Positions 17,980-31,333 of a stretch of 64,000 nucleotides of DNA are shown here, one piece after another. Positions within the stretch are counted from its first letter, which is position 1; each line of letters opens with the position of its first letter. The notes below the pieces were generated by a model. That model did no database searches. It was given only the letters and a program-made list of their open reading frames with translations, and was not told where the DNA came from. The translations under genes were made by a program, and so were the position numbers. This DNA is from Edaphochlamys debaryana (lineage: Eukaryota; Chlorophyta; Chlorophyceae; Chlamydomonadales), in NCBI GenBank assembly GCA_016858145.1, contig JAEHOE010000024.1, forward strand, positions 124,001 to 188,000, read 5' to 3'.

Positions 17980-20900
17980 ATGCATGCGCGGACTGGATTT
18001 GCCGTCGGCGTGGCCTCGTCGACGACGCCCCCCGCCGCGCCCCTGGCAGCCCCCTCCGTCCCGCCCTTGCCAAGCACACGCAACCATAGCCGCATCCTCA
18101 CGACCGCGTCGGGCAGCCGCCAAGCGCCCTCTGGCTCCCAGTACCGCCGCTGCGGCAACGCCCTGACCGCCAGCGGCCGTGCCGCCATGTGGGTCGGCCG
18201 GCAGCCCCCGGCCCCGGCCCTACGCAGCAGCTCAGGATCCTCTGCCCCCACAGCCACCCCAACCCTTGCCACAGCCTCCTCCCCCGCCGCGGTCGCCACT
18301 ATCCCTGCCGCACCCAGCGCCGTCGCCGACGGCGCCGCTACCGCTGCGGGTACCGCCACCGCCGCCGCCGGGCCGCTGCCGCCGCGCCTCACCGCCGCGG
18401 ACCTTCGCCTCCACATCCAGCGCCTCGGGCTAAGGGCCGCAGTGGTCCCCACGCCCCCGCCCCCCTCGCCCCAGCAACCTTCCCCTCCGCCCGCCGCCCC
18501 CACCCCCTCCTCGGCCACTGCCCCCGCCGCTGACGGCGCCTCTACCACCTCTGCCGCCGCCACTGCCGCGGCCCCTGCTGCTGCCTCTGCCACCGCCCCT
18601 TGCGCTGCCTCGGGCGATGTGGTCCCGGGCTGGGTCCCGGCCGGGCCCCGGCTGGGCCCGGACGTCAAGTCCATCGTGCTGGTGGCGGGGGAGGGCCCGG
18701 TGCTGGCGGTGGTTCCCCTGGCGGGCCGGGTGGACGAACGCAAGCTGGCGGCGTTGCTGGGGGTGAGGGGGTGGGAGGGGGAGGGGCGGGAGGGTGGGAG
18801 GGGTTTCGAGGGAATGATGGGGGGCGGGTCGGAGGGGTGAGGTGAGGGGGGGGCGACTGGGTGTTCGTGGTGGGCGGCAGGGGCAGCAGCAGCGGCCGCA
18901 GCCTCTGTGGAGGTGGCCGATGGCGGCCGGGCAGGGTGAGAAGGGCGGATCCAAAATCCAATCCAGCCGGAGCCGTACACCATGCGTCTAGCCGTACCGT
19001 ACGAACGACAGGGGCGGCTGGTTGCCGAAGTGGCCCTGATGAGGGCAGGCCCAAAGACATTACCCGTAGCCTTGACTCAGACCGCCATGCGTTTCATGCC
19101 ACAAACCACCAACCGCCGCGTCCCCCCCTCCCCTGCTGGATCTGGATCTGGATCCAGATCTCGCGGCGGCGCGTTCGGCTGGCGCGGGAGGAGGAGGTCC
19201 TGGCGCTGAGCGGCTACGTGGTGGGCACCGTGCCGCCGCTGGGTGAGTAAGGGCTGAGTAAGGCCTGCGGATGACAAAGGCCGTGGCTTACTAAGAGGGG
19301 TGGACTAGGGCACGTTGATCTGGGTCAGGAGGGGGGCTGAAAGGGAGCGGGCGCCGTGCGGAACACACGACAAGGGACCCGAACGGCAATGAGGGTAGCG
19401 TTCAGGGGCTTGATCCCAACACGTTAACTTCCCAAACCGGCCGCCAACAAAAGCCGCTCAAACAGCCAGCTCTCAATCCTCGCCCGCGTCGTAGCTCCGT
19501 CGAGGCCCTCTTCACGTATCTTGAGTTCAATAGAAAGCCCCGTCCGGTTCTTTATTAGCTACCATTGCAGCATTGAGCTGCCTGTGGCAGCCGAGGCACA
19601 CCCCGCTCAAACGTCTTGTGGACGTCTTGTGGACCAAGCTATGTGCAGCTATAGGACAAAATATGTTGCTGTTGATCAGATGTGCGCATGTGTCTCACGC
19701 CCCCCTCAACCGGGCAGCGCTGCGCTCCCGGTCCCCCCCGCTGAGGGCGCACGCCGCCGTGCGGCACCCCACCCCTTGCCCCTCGAGCCCCTGCTCTGCC
19801 CCCCCCTCCTCGCTCCACCCCTCAACGACTGCTCCGCCCTCCCCTTCCTCAACCTGCACCCCTTCCTCACCGCCGTACTGGTACTGCCACGCAACACTGC
19901 TCCACGCTTCGCCCCCTTCCTCGCCCTTCTCGTCCCCATTCTCCTCTCCCTGCCCGCCTCCGCCGTCTCCGCCGGGAACCGGGAGCTCGCCCAACCATGC
20001 GTCCATGCACAACACGCGAAGGCCCTCAGCGGAAAGGCCGCGAGCGAGGTCCTCATAGAAGCGATCCAGGCTAGCTGCCGACTGCGACGACATAGACGCC
20101 GTCAGCAGCTTGCGGCCTCGCACGTGCTCCAGAGAGGAACGACGTGTAATGCCGAGATGGGAGGCTCCTTCCGAGCCGCCGCCTTGGTTGTCTGGGCAGG
20201 CGAACTTGCTGCAGATCGCAACCAGGGCGCTGGGGATGGGCGTGTGGTCTGTGGTTTTGAGGGGGTGAGTGCGCGGGGGTTGAGTGTCGCGCGACGGCTT
20301 GGATTCAGCCGCGTGTCGTTTCAGCCCGGTGGCTCACCGAGCGCGAACACAATCGAGTCTTGCTCCGCTCTTGCTCGGTCGCGCTTCAGCGCCAAAGCTT
20401 CATTGGCGCGTGCCAGCTCGGTGCTGCGCGACGTCGCGATGGCGAGACCTTTCGTCGCCTTGAGGGCTTCCACTCGGCCGCTAGCACATAGCTGTAGCGC
20501 GATACATGCTAGAGCAAGGAAATGTCTCAGCCGGGCCATCACCTTCGATGCCGAGCTTGAATGTCCCAGTCGGGTCGATGGCGCACGGCAAAATTCTCGC
20601 GCGGTAACTCCTGCTGGGTCGAGGGAGCGACAGCTAGGGATGCAGTCGTGGGTGGAGAGGGTTTCAGCTTTGGCCTGGGGTCCAGGCCCGCAGGTTACTC
20701 AGGCCACGCAACTCCTAACCGATGGCCTCACGCTGCCTCTAGGGGCTCGTTGGCTCACTGGCAGCCCCTGCACCGCCCTACCTTCCGTCCTTGCGCGAAC
20801 TCGCCCTCCTCATGTGCATAACCCGCTCTCCCTTTCTTGCTCACCCCCGTGGTGCTTCAACTGCCCCCCAGGCCACATCCGCCCCCTGCCCACCTATGTG

Positions 20901-23900
20901 GACGCCTCCATCGCACGTACGGGAGGTGTTGTCTACGGTGGCGGCGGGGACCACGACACGGACCTCGAGATCGCCGTACAAGATCTGCTGCAGGCAAGAT
21001 CATGACTTGAAGCGCGCGCACGAGGAGTCACCAGCTGCGCACCACCCATTCTCCAGCTTTCAACGGGTTTGTCCCAGCCCCCCAGGACCTAGCGCGTCCG
21101 CCCTCACTCTGCTTGGAAGCGTAAAAATGACGTACTGCCAGCACCGGTACCGCTTGATCTCGTGACCTGATCTCCTTTCGTACAATCTGCTCCCATCTGC
21201 CCGCAGTACACCCAGGCCACCGTTGCGGACATCTGCCGCGACCCCTCCTCCGCCTCCTCCTCCTCCTCGTCCCTGGCTTCAGCCTCCCTCGCCTCCGCCT
21301 CACTCGACTATCCCTCTCCCCCCACCTCTCCCTCTCCCTCCGCCTCCGCCTCCGCCTCCTCCCTGACCTCGCTCGCCTCTATCGATGAGGCCTCCCCCGC
21401 AGCCGCGGCCCCCGCACCCCAGCACCCCTCTTCCCGGCCCTCCAGCCCCAACAGCAACACGTCAGCGGCGGTCAGGGCAGAGGCGGCGGCGGCCGAGGTG
21501 GCGGCGGCGGCGGCAGCGGAGGTGGCGGCGCCGCTGCCCGAGCCCTGGGCCCGGGGCAGTGGGGAGGTGTCTCTGGTGGCTGTGGTGGCTCAGCGGCGGC
21601 GGATCGCCAAGCTGCTGCAGGTGGGGCGGGGGAGGGGAGGGGGAGAGGAGGGGCCGGGGGGAGGGGGGAAGGTCGTGATGGTCGAGCGGGGCCCGGGGGA
21701 GACTGGCGTATCACCGGTATGCGGGTTCTCGACGAGCGGCCCGCTCGGGCTGGGCGTAACCTCTGTCTGTTTTCTGTACATGTAACCTCTGCCTGTCTTT
21801 CTGATTCATGAACATCCTCTCTCCCTCCTGCTTCCCCCCCCCCCCAGTTCGTGGTATTGGTCCCCGAGGGTGTCCCCCCCCCGCCCCGCCCCGCGGGCCA
21901 GGCGGTGTGGCTGCGGCGGCTGTGGACAAACCCCGACACGGGTGGGGCGGGGGCGGGGACGGGTGCATGGGCGGGGGAGGGCATCTGATCATGGGCCCAC
22001 GAAACCTCCTCCCCCCACTTGATCGTGTCACGATGTATGGGCGGGGGAGGGCCGGCGAGGGGGGGCGGGCAAGGGGCGCCCAGCAACATTTGACATGGGG
22101 ATGCTTCGCTGCGGACCAGGTTGCGCGGGGAGCTTTCAAGCCCTGTCAAGCCACCCTCGCCCCCCCTGCCCCCCGTGTCTCCCCCAGGCCAGCCCGCCGA
22201 GGTGCAGCTCATCATGGGGAAGACGCTGGAGCGGGCCCTGGGGCGCGAGGGGGCGCAGCGACTGATGGACCAGGCAGGGCGGGGGGGGGAAAGGGGGGGG
22301 GGGTTCAGGAAGGGAAACGGAGGGGGTTCAGGAAGGGAAAGCGATGTGGGGTCAGGAGATCCAGGGTGGCCTAGGGAGTCAGGGTGGCAAGGGAGCAGGG
22401 CCCGGATGGCAGCGATTACAGCGCGGTGTTCAAAGCGAACGTGAATGCCCTTGTTCTCGGCCCAAACGGTAACACGCGAACGCGCTCGGCTGCTTGCCCG
22501 CCTCATCCTCACGTCTTGCGTTGCCACGGCCGCGAGGTGACTGGGGGCCTGGAGCCAAGCGTGCCATCGTGCTCTACGCTGCATTGCGCTTTGCTTTAAG
22601 CCCTTGTTCTCTCTCATTGTAATTCCCCTCAGGTCCGTGTGGGTTGCGTCGTGTCGGTCACCGGCCGCCTGCAGCAGCACCACTCGGCTGCCTCGCCTCC
22701 TCCCCCCTCGACCCCTGACGCCCCCGCCTCGCCCGCATCGGACGCCACGCCTGGATCTAGATCTGGATCTGGACCCGGATCTGATTCTGGATCTCAGCAG
22801 CCTTCCTGCGTGCTGGATCTGGTTGCCTCGAGCGTGGTGGTGCTGCACCGGAGCAAGTGAGGGGGTGGGAATGGTGGGGGAAGGTGCGGGACGAGAAGCT
22901 GAGAAGGCCCGGCCTGCCCGGCGCGCCGACTCTCCGGCAGCCCTCCCAGCATCGGCTCTCAAGGCTCAGGCCGTCTAGGGACGACCAGGGACGAACAAGG
23001 CTCAGGCAGCATGGGGATGACGAGGAGCGACCTGACCCCAACAGCCGCACTGCCCCTTGCCCTCCCCCTCGAGTCGGGAACCCCCTGTCCCGCCTGCACC
23101 CTTACCCCTCTGCCTAAGCCCTCCTCTCTCCTGCCCCCGCCCCTGCTCCCAGGGACGACCTGAACTCGGCCCTCCGCGCCGCCCGCCGCAACGGCCTGGG
23201 CCACCCCACCACCGCCGCTGAGCTCCTGGCGCTGCGGCAGGGGGCGGCGGGGGCGGGGCAGGGGGGGACGGGGCAGGGGGGGATGGGTTCGGGGCGCAGT
23301 GCTGGAGAGAGCGACCGAGCGGAGGAGGCCGAGGGCGGGGACGGGGACGAGGCGGCGGCGGGGGAGGCGGGCGGGAGCAACACCACCCGTGGGGCTGACG
23401 GCCGGGGCCGGCGCCAGCAAACCCAGCCGCCGCGACCGCGTCAGCCAGCTCCTGCCTCCTTCGACTCCTCCACCTCCTCCTCCTCCTCTTTTCCTGGGCC
23501 TGCCGGCTCGGGTGCTGCTGCCACCTCCTCACCAGCGGGGCCTGGGCGGGGCCTGGGGGCGGAGGGTGGGCCCACGGCGGGCCCATGCTGGACCATGGCT
23601 CTGCCCCTCTCCGCCGTACACATGGTGTCTACCGCCGCCGAGGTGGAGGCCATGCAGGCCCAGATTCTGGATTCTGGATCCTTGACCCAGGACGGCCGCG
23701 ACGGAAGCCGCCAGAAGCTGCAGGTGGGCGGTTTTGGGGTGAGGGCGGAGGAGGATGGGGACAGCATGCTCCCTTTCCTCCTCCCGGCTTGCCCAGTGCC
23801 TCCTATCCCTCCCCTTCTTCCGCTCAGGAGGTGGGTCTGGACTGCGAGGGAGAGCCCTCCCTATCCGCCTCCCCCTCCGCCCCCCCGTTCTCCTTGTTCG

Positions 23901-26247
23901 CCTGCCACTTCCTCCCCTTCCACCCTCACTCCCTTCCCCCCCCCTCCCTGCCTCCCCCCTCAGGTGGTGGGTCTGGACTGCGAGTGGGAGCCCTTTGATC
24001 GGGGGCAGCCGCCCACACCCGTGGCACTCCTGCAGGTGGGAAGGCAGGGGGGCAGGGGGCTTGGGGGGTTGGGGGGTTGGGGGGGCAGAGGGGAGTGTGG
24101 GGCCAAGGCCGAGGGAGGACTCTCGGGGATGACCCGTGGCACTGCTGCAGGTGGGGAGGCAGGTGGGGAGGCAGGGGGGTTGGGGGGTTGGGGGTTTGGG
24201 GGGGCAGGGGGGAGGCAGGGAGCTGGGGGGGGGGGATGGGGGGGGCAGGGGAAGTGCGGGGCTGAGGCAGAGGGATGACACGTGGCGTTACTCCATGTGA
24301 AGCCGCCTGGGGGTTAGTGGGACCGGGGAAGGACATGACGGCTTCAGAATCGAATCCAAGCTACCACTATCCAAGCCCCTCCCACCCATGTGGCCACGCA
24401 CTCCCACGTGACCCCTGCTCAGTCCCAGGAGGCCCATGACGTCAACCCCCCTTGCCCCTTGCCCCTGTCGCCCCCTCCCCCTACCCCCCCCCCCCAGGTG
24501 GCCACGCGCACCCACGTGTTCCTGGTCGACCTCCTGGCGCTGATGCAGCCGGGGTCCAGGGGGGGAAGCGGAACCGTCGGGGGAAGCGGAACCGTCGGGG
24601 GAAGCGGAAGCGGCGCGAGCGGCAAGGCCGAAGCCGACGCCCAAGCCGCGGGCGAGGGCGAGGCCGAGGGAGGAGGCCTGCGCTCGGCCCTGGGCGCCGG
24701 CCCCAGCGGCGCCAAGGGCGAGGGTGGGGGCGGCGGCGAGGGCGGGGGCGGGGGCGAGGGCGGGGGCGAGGCCGGCCGCGGTGCGCTGGCGCTGAGTCGC
24801 TTCCTGGAGGCGCTGTGGCGGCGGCCCGGTGTGGTGGTGGTGGGGTTCCAGCTGGCCAGCGGTGAGGGTGGGCATGCGGGGGGGTGGGTGGGTGTATGGG
24901 GAAGGGGGGCGGCGTGGCTGACGGGCTTGAGACTCTGGGGGCCGGTAGCGGAGAGGGCGGGATGGGATCGGGCGGGTGGGGTGGGGTGGAGCAGGGTGCG
25001 GCGGCAAGCAGGGGCAAGCCTGCTGCATGACTACCCGTTGGGTGCTGACACGCGACGCCCATGCGACAGAGCCTGCCCCAAACCCCAGCCCCAACCCTAT
25101 CCACATTCCCCTCCCCTCCCTTCCCTCTTAGACGTGGTCAGCTTGGCCCCTTCCCTTTATCCCTTACCCAACCTTTGCTCCCGTCCCCTCCCATCTTTCC
25201 ATCCCTCCCTCCACTCCCCCCCCCCCTCCCCTTCCCTTCGCCCCCCAGACGTGGACCGCCTGGCCCCCTCCCCCCCTCCCTCCCTTCCCCAAGCCGGCTC
25301 CCATGTTTCCATCCCCTCCCTCCCCTTCCCTTCCCCTCCCCCCCCCCCCAGACGTGGACCGCCTGGCCCACTCCTACCCGGGGCTACCCTGCTTCAGCGG
25401 CCGCCTGCCACACACCGGGGGCCCGGAGCCCGCCCCCTCGTCCCCCTCCACCCACGCCTCCTCCTCCTCTGCCCCCGCCGCTGCCTCCACCTCCGACTCC
25501 GCCAACGGGGCCGCCGGGGGCGGCGGCGCCGGCGCTGTCAACTCCGCCCCCGCCTCCGCCAGCGCTGCCGCTGCCGCCTCCGACGTCGTCGGCGGCGGCG
25601 CTGTGTGGGTGGACGTCGTGGCACTGGCGCGGGCGCTGCGGCCCGAGCTGGAACGGACGCCGCAGGTCGGACTCAGCCGCCTTGTGGCCATGGTGGGTGG
25701 GGTGGGGACCGGGGGGGGGGCGATTGGGGGGGTGGTGAGCGTGGATGGGTTGTTGCCACGTGCAGCGATCTGGGTCAGTCTCGGAGCGTGGAGGCGGGGT
25801 GGAGGGGAAATCGGGCGGACTACGGTACCTATGGGGCTTGGGGTCGTGCAGGGGCAAGCGCCTGATTGGGAGGGATTCGTAGACTGCCGTTTGATGTTGT
25901 GATTATCTACCGCATGTGGGCTTTCTGACGTACTGGTGCCATATCCTCGGTCTCCGCAGGTGCTTGGAGCGCCGCTGGACAAGGCGGAGCAGCGTAGCGC
26001 CTGGAGCGCACGGCCCCTGTCGTACGCACAGGTGTCGTACGCCGCAAGTGACGCGGCGTGCCTGGTGGAGCTGTACGACAAGCTGATGGGGTTGGACGGA
26101 GCGGGGGCCGCGGGGTCTGAGGGGGGCCCGACAGGGGCGGCATCGGGGCTGGGCGGGGAGCAGGAGATCGAGGAGAGGATCCTGGCAGCGCTGCCGCGGG
26201 CGGTGTCACGGCTGCCAGTGACGAGCGCACCGGCTGGGGCCGTGTGA
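17980..26247 (+). CDS. YbaK-type tRNA deacylase / OB-like / DEDDy 3'-5' exonuclease fusion
   Basis: Twelve exons close in phase to 1147 residues: 17980-18762, 19158-19242, 20872-20993, 21207-21620, 21848-21941, 22188-22273, 22633-22856, 23153-23723, 23964-24035, 24498-24861, 25352-25692, 25960-26247 (TGA). The ATG opens an Ala/Ser/Arg-rich, transit-peptide-like N-terminus. The YbaK/ProX-like editing domain spans roughly residues 120-330: VKSIVLVAGEG carries the Lys expected at the active site, then LSGYVVGTVPPLGG and LPTYVDASIARTGGVVYGGG. An OB-like segment follows (EVSLVAVVAQRRR, VQLIMGKTLERALG, VGCVVSVTGRL). A long disordered linker leads to an RNase D-like exonuclease with all acidic motifs: VVGLDCEWEPF (D, E), GFQLASDVDRLAHSYPG (D), YAQVSYAASDA (Y, D). 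Two GC-AG introns are inferred (donors 20994, 22274). Likely role: editing or trimming of tRNA or other RNA in an organelle; the combination of activities is inference. Confidence 0.8.
19695..20539 (-). CDS. possible nested antisense gene, secreted protein
   Basis: Lies inside the 1.6-kb second intron of the YbaK-exonuclease gene, on the opposite strand. Exon 1 (20539-20338) starts with a good signal peptide (MARLRHFLALACIALQLCAS), continues as a helical stretch and ends at a consensus donor (G|GTGAGCC). A second coding stretch to TGA at 19695 includes SAASLDRFYEDLARGLSAEG and LRVLCMDAWLGELPV, then turns Gly/Glu-rich. The joining acceptor is not settled: the one that keeps phase (near 20190) has a poor pyrimidine tract. 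No family recognised. The unusual length of the host intron supports a real insert, but transcription is unproven. Confidence 0.35.
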
Positions 26248-26700: not shown

Positions 26701-29700
26701 ATGGCGGACGAGGTGTCTACGGAGCTGACGGCGACGCAATATGTCATTCTCGCCGAGTGAGCAAATTGATGGCGCCCGGGGTTTCTGGTGCGGGTTACGC
26801 GCGGGGCCGCGGCATGTTTGCCGCGGAGCGCCCCGAATGCGCCTACTGGGCTATGTCGCTGCCACCTGGTGATGTTGCGGTTGTGTAGGAACCAGCGCAA
26901 GAAGAAGGCACTCGCCGAGACAAAGAATCAATTCAGCAAGGTCGCGGATGAGAACCGCGTTCTGCTCAAGCAGCTCGAGGACAACCAGCGGGAGAACTAC
27001 CAGGTATGTTGGTCGGGGGGGGGGGGCTTTGGAAGGGGAAACAGGGGAGGGGGGGAGGGGGAGGGGCGGGTCCAGGAGGAAACAAAGGAGGGGCAGGGTG
27101 ACGGGCCATACACGTGGGTCCGGGACGCCGGCGCCGGTGGCCTCCGTGTGGACTGCTGGGCCCTTAGTCCCACAGCCGCGCTTCCCAGGGCTTTGCCTGG
27201 ACGCCGGGTTCACCATCGAGCCTTCGCATGCATCAACGCCCGCACGCTCCCCCCAATCCCGACAGGTCACGGAGCATCTCCGCCGGGAGCTGCTCGCAAA
27301 GACTGAGCACATTGCCTCTCTCGAAGGGGACCTGATCAAGGTAGGGAGAGATCCTAGGGGGGTAGGGGAGGGAGGGAGGGAGGGGGGGTGAGGGGGTTCC
27401 AGGGCGATGGGTTCAGGGCTAGCTAGATCACGCTAGGACCGAAAGTTGGGAGGGACCACCCGGGAGGGACTTGGTCCATTGGGGGGAGGGCCCCAGGGGG
27501 GGAAAGGAGGGGTGCAGAGGAGGAGGGGTCCAGGGGAGGCAGGGGCAGGGAAGGGCCCTAGTGAAGGTGGGGAGGGGCCGGCGTGTCGAAGGAAGGGATG
27601 GAGGGTACGCCAGGCGGAGAGGTTCAGCTTCAGCCTTCGGGGCAGGCTGGGTCGCGCTAAGGCTGAGCTCGGGGAGCTTGGGGAGGGGCCCTGGTACAAG
27701 GGCAGGGGGAGGTCCGGCGGGGCTGGGTCCAGGGGAGGGGGTGTCAAACCAGGGTCGGGTTGGGCAAGGTGACGTGGACAAGGCGATGCCCGCCCTGGGG
27801 TGAAGGCAGCGCGGGGCGAGAGGGGAGGGAGGGGGAGGGAGGGGGCGAGGATGGGCCGGGCCGGGCCGAGCGAGCCGGTTGAGGTACAGGGTACCGTGGG
27901 GAGGGGCAGCCCAGCTCCCCCTCGCTCCCCCCTCCCCCCCCCTTCTCCCGCCCCTCTCCCTTCCCCTCACTCCTTACCCCCCATCCCTCAACCCCCCACC
28001 CCCACCCACCCACCCCCACACACACTCCGGGGTCTCGTCGGGCTTCCTACTTGCTTACGGTTTCCTCGTTGCCTAACACACACACACCTTACCCGCCCAC
28101 CCCCTCCCCTGGCAGCTCGCCCAGGACAAGGACGCTGAGATCAGTGCGCTGCGGGATGCCTCGGAGCGAGACAAGGCCCGCATCCGGGGCGAGGGGGAGG
28201 CGCGGGCGAGGGAGCTGCAGGCCATCATTGACGCACTGCAGGTGGGGGGGAGGGGGGGCCTAGGGGGAGGAGGTCAGGGGGAGGGGAGGAGGGGAGAGGG
28301 GAGGAGAGGGAGGGGGGGGAGGGGGGGAGGTCAGGGGGCGGAGAGGGAGGGAAGGGGGGTAGGCGGGCAAGGGGGCAAGGGGGCAAGGGAGCTGCAGGCC
28401 ACCATAAATGCACTGAGGGGGCCAGAGGAGGGAGGGGAGGGGAGGGGGGCAGGGGTGGGAGGGGAGGGGAGGGGGATGTACCGGATGTGATGGCTGTGAG
28501 TGTGGCGGGGGCCTGAGCGCTTGGGAGTTCCAGTGCCTCTGTCCAGGGGAGCGTGGGCACTTGCCCTTACGCGACGACGTGTCAAGTGCGGGCGGGAATC
28601 TGTACGCCGACGTTGCTGTGACCTTGCTCCACCGCAACGAGACGTGAACTGCGGAGGCGGGTGTCAAGGGGGCACCGTTGCGGTAGTTGGGCTGTACAGC
28701 TGCTCGCAGCTCTCTCACACCCTTCCCTCCTACCCCTACCCACTCCCTCTCCCCCCCGCCCCTACCCTCTCCCCCCCCCCTAACCCCCAAGGCCGACCTG
28801 GACAACGTGCTGGAGTTCAAGGAGCGGCAGCAGGAGGTGGAGGAGGCCCTGATGCGGCTCAAGGAGGAAAACCAGGTGGGGGGGCTGGGGGGGGGGGGAG
28901 GCTGGGGGGGGCTCTGCTCGTGTAAAGACCGAGAGAAGCGTAGGCGCGGTGATTAGCCGGCTGGCCTTAGATACGGAACCAGGTGTGTGTGTGTGTGGGG
29001 GGAGGGTTGGATGAGGTGGGGGTCAGGGGGTGCATGAGAGGAGGTGGGGGAGGGGGGTTGGCCGGGAGGGGCGATGCGAAGGGCTCTGCGGGCTTGGCGG
29101 CGAGCACAGTAAGTCCCGTCCCCCTTGACGGGGTGTGGCGACGCAGGGCTCCTACTCGAGCTCCACCCTGCCACCACCACCACCGCCGTCAACGCCTCCT
29201 CTCCCCCCACCCTCCCCACCCTCCCCTCCCCTCCCTTCCCCCCCAGGTGCTTACGGAGAAGCTGGAGCAACAGCGCGTGGAACTGGACAGGTGGGGGGGG
29301 GGCGGGTGGGGGGGAGGGGGAGGGAAGGTGGGGGATAGGAGCGAGGAGTAGGGGAGGATGGGGAGAGGGAGGCGCGGGGCGGGACACGCGCGTGCGCCCT
29401 CCAACACGAACCCATCACACACACACACACCCTCCACCTCCCCTCCCACACCCTCCCCCATCCCCCAACCCTCCTCCACCCCCCCCCCCGCTTAACAGCT
29501 TCAAACACCCCCTCAAACACCCCCTCCCTCCTCCCCCGTTTCCCCCCCTCAACCCCCCCCCCCATCCCCCCAGGTACTACTTTGAGCTCAACACGCGCAT
29601 GCGCAAGGAGTACGAGCAGCGCCTGGAGGAGCTCAAGAAGAGCGCCGAGGAGGAGGTGGACGAGCGCCTGGACGCCAGCGTCAAGCGCATCCTGGCGCAG

Positions 29701-31333
29701 AACAGGCGCATGGCGGAGGAACTCAAGATCCACGTGCAGGTCCGTACGTGTGCCGTACGGGGGCTGCCGTACGCATGTGTGCCGCACGAGGGTGCTGTTT
29801 AGTCCGGCACCGTGTGTGTGTGCCGTACGATGTGCAAGTGCGCCCTTCTCCTCCGCTCCCCAATCAAACGCCCTACCCCCTCTCCAGACTCCTCTCCACA
29901 CACCCTCCTTCCCCCATTCACACACCCTCCCCACACACCCTCCCCCCACACACACACCCCACACACACCCCACCACCACCAGGAGACCGAGGCGCTCCAG
30001 TCCGAGGTGCGTGTGCTGGAGGAGTCCCGCTCCCGCCTGAGCCGCGAGGTGGCGCTCAAGACCGACCTGGAGGCGGGCTACGCGGCGCGGGGGGCCCGGC
30101 AGGCGGGGGCGCTGCGGGAGGCGCAGGCGCGCATCACGGCGCTGGAGGGCAGCCTGCAGCAGGTGGGGGGGTGGGGGGAAGGGGTGGGAGGGGCGGGGGG
30201 GGGGAACGGAGGGGCGCTGGAGGGCAGCCTGCAGCAGGTGGGGGTGGGATGGGGTGGAGGGTGGGGTGAGGGCTGGTGGGGGTGGGAATGAAAGAGTAGG
30301 TTCACCTGTTCACCTGAGCACTGCTTGCGCCCACAGCGGCCCCCGCCTACCCTCCTCCGCCTAAGCTTGCGGCTGGACGGTGCTGGGGACCGCCAGCGCG
30401 GTGCTGGCCTGACCCGAAATATCCCACGTGCCTCCAAACTTTTCGACTTTGCGAGCACCCCCGAGCGCTCGCTTAGGCCCCACGAACCCCGCCTTAGCTC
30501 CTCCTCAACCCCCCTCCCCCTCCCCTTCTCCCCCAGGTGGTGACGGACTTTGACCGGGAGCGCCAGGCCAGCGCCAAGGCGGCCGCAGCGGCACTCACGG
30601 ACGTGCAGGTGGGGGGGGCTGCTCGCCGGGCCGTGGGTGCCCGGTTATACGGCACCGTCCGGCACCGTGCTGGCGGGCGTTGTGCCGTACAGCGCTCCTG
30701 CTCGTGTACCGGTGCTTAACTCGTGTTGCTGCGTGTTCTTGCTCATGCAGGCCGAGGCGGAGGCGCTGCGGCGGCTGGTGAAGCTCAAGACAAGGGAGCT
30801 GAAGAACGTGCGGAGGCTGGCGCAGGCAAGGCGGCGGGCCCTTAGGGGGGGGGTCGCGAGGGCGCAAGGCGGGGCGCTGTACCCTCACACTCGACTTCGG
30901 GCATGCCTTGCCGCCCACCGACCCCCTTCCGTCTCCCCTCTCCCCCTACTCCCAGGAGGTCCTCCTGCAGCGGTCCGACGTGGAGGCCTTCCTGCTCTCC
31001 TCGCTCCACGCCGTGCGCCGGGAGGTTGAGCGCGAGAGCCTCTTCCCCTCGCACCGGGGCGGCGGCGGCGGCGGCGGCGGCTTCGGCGGCGGCGGCGGGG
31101 GTGCGGACATCAAGGACCTGCCCTGGGAGGACCGCGAGCGTGTGCTGCGGCTGCTGTTCTCCAAGATCAACAACCAGGCGCAGCAGGTTCACTTCGCGTC
31201 GTTGCCGCCCCACCCGCTGGGGCTGGCGCCGGGGATGGGGACGGGGATGGGGGGCGCGGGGTTTGGAGCGGAGGCGTCGGAGCTGATGGGGCCGGGCGTG
31301 GCGACGGAGGCGGGGCCGGCGCCGGAGGTGTGA
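26701..31333 (+). CDS. BBOF1: basal body orientation factor 1 (BBOF1/CCDC176) homologue
   Basis: A coiled-coil protein of basal bodies and motile cilia. Eleven exons join in phase to 456 residues: 26701-26756, 26889-27003, 27266-27340, 28116-28241, 28792-28875, 29247-29290, 29574-29739, 29983-30162, 30537-30608, 30751-30825, 30956-31333 (TGA). Heptad-rich helix runs from about residue 20 to 350. Family-specific blocks are KTRELKNVRRLAQ, the following DVEAFLLSSLHAVRREV, and the C-terminal DLPWEDRERVLRLLFSKIN, which match vertebrate BBOF1 closely as I recall it. A Gly-rich insert (about 12-15 residues) precedes the last block, and a Met/Gly-rich tail ends the protein. The intron after 30825 begins GCAAGG (GC-AG). 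In animals the family maintains basal-body orientation, so the role here is by homology. Confidence 0.85.

What the first reader, a model, noticed from the sequence alone, without database searches (positions are those of the whole stretch)
17980..26247. Single-chain fusion of a YbaK-type tRNA deacylase, an OB-like domain and a DEDDy exonuclease
Seen: one set of phase-consistent exons links a YbaK-like domain (with the Lys of VKSIVL and the GYVVGTVPPLGG loop), a segment with OB-fold-like spacing, and an RNase D-type exonuclease with all acidic motifs and the Tyr of DEDDy. Known: YbaK/ProX proteins hydrolyse mischarged tRNA, and RNase D-like enzymes trim tRNA 3' ends. I do not recall this combination in land plants or animals. 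Inference: one protein could deacylate and then trim or destroy faulty tRNA, probably in an organelle given the N-terminus. This is the best candidate here for an undescribed system.
Basis: partly seen in the sequence, partly recalled or inferred. Interest (0 to 1): 0.82.

Follow-up and report, generated by a model that had tools for sequence, protein, structure and literature searches.

The report
tRNA-deacylase, OB and exonuclease in one protein
A gene of a green alga encodes one long protein that joins a domain of the kind that strips wrong amino acids off tRNA, a predicted nucleic-acid-binding domain, and an RNA-trimming domain; the same trio occurs in other green algae and in a brown alga, so it is real, but what the combination does is untested.

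Summary
A 12-exon gene with coding ends at exactly 17980 and 26247 encodes 1147 residues: presequence-like N-terminus, INS-superfamily (YbaK/ProXp) aminoacyl-tRNA deacylase domain (Pfam E 1e-20), OB-like domain, DEDDy 3'-5' exonuclease (7e-15). Catalytic residues are intact. Six annotated proteins, five green-algal and one brown-algal, have the same order. One gene, not two: exon 4 holds the YbaK end and the OB start, exon 8 the OB tail and the exonuclease start.

Corrections: by sequence the exonuclease is nearest Mut-7/Nibbler, not RNase D. The OB fold is predicted; synthetase anticodon-binding OBs lead the fold matches (34 of 50 rows), but MCM and PolC OBs tie within 1 Z, and sequence homology to synthetases is not shown. 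The same genome has a second locus with exonuclease and YbaK exons, apparently a Mut-7 homologue.

Best reading: an organellar tRNA 3'-end surveillance enzyme that removes a wrong amino acid, then trims the freed end. Anatomy is shown; coupling, substrate and location are inferred. My searches found no paper on this architecture.

The parts
17980..18762 (+). Exon 1: N-terminus without acidic residues up to aa 116, then the first part of the YbaK/ProXp domain with Lys230 (codon at 18667)
19158..19242 (+). Exon 2: YbaK/ProXp domain with the GXXXP loop (GYVVGTVPP)
20872..20993 (+). Exon 3: YbaK/ProXp domain; followed by a GC-AG intron
21207..21620 (+). Exon 4: end of the YbaK domain (YTQATVAD), low-complexity linker, and start of the OB-like domain (from about 21537) in one open frame
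21848..21941 (+). Exon 5: OB-like domain
22188..22273 (+). Exon 6: OB-like domain with EVQLIMGKTLE; followed by a GC-AG intron
22633..22856 (+). Exon 7: OB-like domain with a low-complexity loop
23153..23723 (+). Exon 8: conserved stretch after the OB (DDLNSALRAARRNGLG), linker, and start of the exonuclease domain (WTMALPLS, from 23589) in one open frame
23964..24035 (+). Exon 9: exonuclease motif I, D798/E800 (GLDCEWEP)
24498..24861 (+). Exon 10: exonuclease domain with a long low-complexity insert
25352..25692 (+). Exon 11: exonuclease motif II with D939 (codon split by intron 10), low-complexity insert
25960..26247 (+). Exon 12: exonuclease motif III, Y1079/D1083 (YAASD), stop codon

Best explanation
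One nuclear gene of a volvocine alga (probably Edaphochlamys debaryana) encodes a three-domain enzyme. Shown by sequence: an INS-superfamily aminoacyl-tRNA deacylase domain with its Lys and GXXXP loop, a conserved middle domain, and a DEDDy 3'-5' exonuclease of the Mut-7/Nibbler kind with its catalytic residues, linked in one open reading chain and kept in this order in other green algae and one brown alga. Predicted: the middle domain is an OB fold. Inferred: the protein enters the plastid or mitochondrion; the OB domain holds a tRNA; the YbaK domain hydrolyses the ester of a mischarged tRNA, which otherwise blocks the 3' end; the exonuclease then removes nucleotides from the freed CCA end, so the faulty tRNA is taken out of use and either rebuilt by CCA addition or degraded.
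Confidence: 0.45

Rival explanations
1. One chain, two tethered but uncoupled activities: the exonuclease trims small RNAs or other transcripts as Nibbler/MUT-7 do, the deacylase edits tRNA separately, and the OB is a general nucleic-acid binder.
For: Exonuclease nearest to Nibbler by sequence (E 3e-27); the OB also resembles OBs of MCM, PolC and SSB; long low-complexity linkers between the domains.
Against: The order is conserved between green algae and a brown alga, and a second locus of the genome pairs the same two domains, which is more than loose tethering predicts. Mut7-C, said to be in most MUT-7 homologues (PMC11347159, start of abstract), was not found here.
Confidence: 0.33
2. The YbaK domain no longer edits; it and the OB recognise tRNA ends and target the exonuclease to uncharged tRNA or tRNA-derived fragments.
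For: INS-family domains recognise acceptor-stem elements (PMC11295145, passages); exonucleases of this kind need a free 3' OH (general knowledge).
Against: The Lys is kept in 7 of 7 and the GXXXP loop in 6 of 7 sequences, which points to kept catalysis.
Confidence: 0.15
3. Two adjacent genes wrongly read as one.
For: Automatic models in this group do merge neighbours: the Gonium model P0003 runs on into the next gene. No transcript evidence was available.
Against: Exons 4 and 8 span the domain boundaries in single open frames, and conserved residues run across the exon 7/8 junction in the five green-algal rows examined (10-13 of 20 identities to the window, four rows). Same order in six annotations. 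No TGTAA motif (volvocine poly(A) signal, recalled) lies near 22.9 kb; the nearest is at 22618, in intron 6; but none lies between the stop and 27500 either, so this test says little.
Confidence: 0.03

Closest known systems
ProXp-x / YbaK trans-editing enzymes of the INS superfamily (TTHA1699 2cx5, APE2540 1wdv, E. coli YbaK 2dxa)
   Same: Homologous domain with the Lys and GXXXP loop; about 100-110 residues matched
   Different: Those are free-standing; 79 of 80 prokaryotic YbaK-relative loci (best 80 of 163) gave open frames of 152-373 aa, single-domain in size. Here the domain is joined to an OB and an exonuclease
MUT-7 / Nibbler / EXD3 exonucleases (7jw2, 7jw6)
   Different: No Mut7-C found; YbaK and OB stand in front instead
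Mut-7 homologue with a YbaK domain: annotated P0007 of Chlamydomonas sp. UWO 241, and the C33 locus of this genome
   Same: YbaK and a DEDDy exonuclease together
   Different: Order exonuclease-YbaK-Mut7-C; the two YbaK pieces form their own group in a weakly resolved tree (100/97). The C33 gene was not spliced into a full model
Anticodon-binding OB domain of class IIb tRNA synthetases (Lys, Asn, Asp)
   Same: Leads the fold matches of the predicted OB
   Different: Ties with MCM and PolC OBs; sequence homology not shown; no synthetase domain
T. brucei MCP3 (INS domain with N-terminal extension) and plant ProXp-ala (INS domain with helical C-terminal domain)
   Same: Eukaryotic INS deacylases with an added part (PMC11286415 and PMC9425024, abstracts and passages)
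   Different: Neither paper's abstract or passages seen describes an added OB or nuclease

Membership tests
[quoted passage not shown]
   74.1 bits against 25.5
[quoted passage not shown]
   K230 and GTVPP; Lys in 7 of 7, loop in 6 of 7 sequences that hold the domain
[quoted passage not shown]
   needs an assay
YbaK, Cys-tRNA(Pro) deacylase (TIGR00011) | Equivalog cut-off | tested here: not met
   60 bits against 153.25 for the window's domain piece; not filed as YbaK
ProXp-x | Closest to 2cx5 within the superfamily | tested here: inconclusive
   Profile and fold favour 2cx5; the window's domain alone scores YbaK 2dxa slightly better (4.5e-12 against 1e-10); tree unresolved, E. coli YbaK on a long branch beside the green domains
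DEDDy 3'-5' exonucleases | PF01612 over cut-off, four acidic residues and Tyr | tested here: met
   55.7 bits against 23.6; D798/E800, D939, Y1079/D1083
MUT-7 / Nibbler / EXD3 | Nearest exonuclease subgroup by sequence | tested here: met
   Nibbler 7jw2 3.2e-27 and 7jw6 3.6e-24, next EXD2 3.6e-17, RNase D 9f7g 1.1e-8 and 1yt3 6e-7
MUT-7 / Nibbler / EXD3 | C-terminal Mut7-C domain (PF01927), in most members | tested here: not met
   not among the families at E up to 1
RNase D (TIGR01388) | Equivalog cut-off | tested here: not met
   50.6, 37.8, 30.2 and 34.9 bits against 298.95 in P0001, P0004, P0005, P0008; the window's own exonuclease was not scanned with this library
OB fold | Five strands with a helix between strands 3 and 4 | tested here: met
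   by prediction only, on the C. incerta relative: pLDDT 60.5 (whole) and 70.8 (domain alone)
Class IIb synthetase anticodon-binding OB (PF01336) | Fold or sequence nearest to that class | tested here: inconclusive

The most novel reading that the evidence does not exclude
A one-chain 'unblock and destroy' tRNA surveillance enzyme of algal organelles: an OB domain holds the tRNA, the ProXp-type domain removes the wrong amino acid that shields the 3' end, and the Nibbler-type exonuclease at once consumes the CCA end, so that a mischarged tRNA is withdrawn rather than recycled. The pairing would have arisen twice in one lineage (YbaK-OB-exonuclease, and exonuclease-YbaK-Mut7-C), and the first form is shared by green algae and a brown alga.
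Probability: 0.28. Interest if true: 0.82.

Novelty: new variant of a known kind. Interest (0 to 1): 0.62.

Why it matters
[quoted passage not shown] A chain that joins such a deacylase to a 3'-5' exonuclease, kept in green algae and a brown alga, would link translation proofreading to tRNA turnover. It makes a direct test possible: does deacylation by one domain feed the exonuclease of the same molecule? It also gives a clue to what YbaK domains do in Mut-7-like proteins.

Tried and rejected
Two-gene reading: rejected on exon and junction evidence. RNase D assignment: rejected. Viral relatives: one viral-contig scan with the family alignment matched 27 stretches, none confirmed. Prokaryotic source of the OB: 36 pattern matches, none confirmed. 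Prokaryotic fusions: 163 YbaK relatives found, best 80 kept; 79 gave an open frame, 152-373 aa; these were judged by length only, not scanned for a second domain. Origin of the YbaK domain: 90-row tree with few columns; five of six fusion rows group weakly (77/84, together with E. coli YbaK on a long branch), the brown-alga row lies elsewhere; Gonium was not in the tree; one origin of the fusion is neither shown nor excluded. OB homology to synthetases by hhalign: not shown. In VIA on the whole model the rows covered the exonuclease only, hence the separate fold of the OB.

Land plants: the third protein search, built from the Mut-7-YbaK type, returned 4 proteins, one from Chlamydomonas eustigma and three without a named organism; candidates were capped in all three searches, so this is no evidence of absence. 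I recall that a plant Mut-7-like protein (At5g24340) may carry both domains; a paper search for that name found nothing; unverified. No row marked as encoded by the window came back; why is not known.

Literature: 10 searches. Those that join YbaK, tRNA_edit, PF04073 or deacylase with exonuclease, mut-7, DNA_pol_A_exo1, PF01612 or Chlamydomonas are; none gave a paper on this architecture (one search used a spelling that may miss 3'-5'; one search listed one E. coli paper, not opened; one search listed two, one read in passages, one not opened). Most subscription papers and all preprints are missing from the library.

Full report
What is there. The window lies in a 141.9 Mb, 502-contig genome. 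Of the eight assemblies in one published table, Edaphochlamys debaryana (142.14 Mb, 527 contigs) is nearest in size and contig number (PMC8226300, passages); this assignment is inference. Between 17980 and 26247 on the + strand, 12 phase-consistent exons give 1147 residues. Introns are GT-AG except 3 and 6, which are GC-AG. Pfam gives PF04073 and PF01612 over their cut-offs and nothing else at E up to 1.

Is it one gene. Exon 4 is one 414-base open frame that holds the end of the YbaK domain and the start of the OB. Exon 8 is one 571-base open frame that holds the conserved stretch after the OB and the start of the exonuclease. At the 11 junctions the C. incerta protein has 8 to 18 identities in 20 aligned residues; at 8/9 they lie almost all after the junction, and the Gonium and brown-alga rows are gapped or weak at some junctions. 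Six annotated proteins have the same order: P0001 C. incerta, P0002 Pleodorina starrii, P0003 Gonium pectorale, P0004 Scenedesmus sp. PABB004, P0005 Scytosiphon promiscuus, P0008 Tetradesmus obliquus. The C. incerta annotation used RNA-seq (PMC8226300, passages), but I saw no reads. As a caution, the Gonium model runs on into the next gene, whose homologue lies in pieces at 26899-31330 of the window; merged models do occur here, though that case lies outside the three domains.

Second locus in the genome. PF04073 matches at C33:419647 over its cut-off, PF01612 at C33:418358 on the same strand, and pieces like the N-terminal part and Mut7-C of P0007 flank them. P0007 of UWO 241 bears all three Pfam domains. 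I did not splice a full C33 model, so that it is one chain is inferred from P0007. Its exonuclease piece is 43% identical to the window's over 155 residues, linkers removed; its YbaK does not group with the window's in a weakly resolved tree.

Reading. The most economical function is 3'-end quality control of tRNA: OB binding, ester hydrolysis, then trimming. Only the anatomy and residue conservation are shown. Substrate, coupling and location are inferred. The Nibbler-like exonuclease and the unspecific OB match leave room for other RNA targets, which is the main rival.

Novelty. Each domain is known, and the architecture exists in public automatic annotations. Six targeted paper searches found no paper that describes it. 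I file it as a new variant of a known kind: an INS deacylase in a new architecture.

Noticed in passing
G000:C33:411000-425000 (L006, L007): Exonuclease, YbaK and Mut7-C exons in one locus, as in the annotated Mut-7 homologue P0007 of Chlamydomonas sp. UWO 241: a second YbaK-exonuclease gene in the same genome, not fully modelled.
   Followed up: partly
window 23820-23858 and 25216-25276: Partial copies of the starts of exon 9 (90% over 39 nt) and exon 11 (75% over 61 nt), each with an acceptor-like CAG, lie in introns 8 and 10: decoy or former tandem exons.
   Followed up: partly
window 26899-31330: The next gene downstream encodes a protein 65-100% identical, in eight pieces, to the tail of Gonium P0003; the neighbourhood is conserved and the Gonium model fuses the two genes.
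   Followed up: partly
P0005 (Scytosiphon) and P0006 (Ectocarpus): Brown algae hold the OB and exonuclease (with YbaK in Scytosiphon) plus a long extra C-terminal part; the Ectocarpus model starts after the YbaK position, perhaps a truncated model.
   Followed up: no
G000:C2:3570796-3571336 (L002, L004): Another DEDDy exonuclease gene (PF01612 over cut-off), not examined.
   Followed up: no
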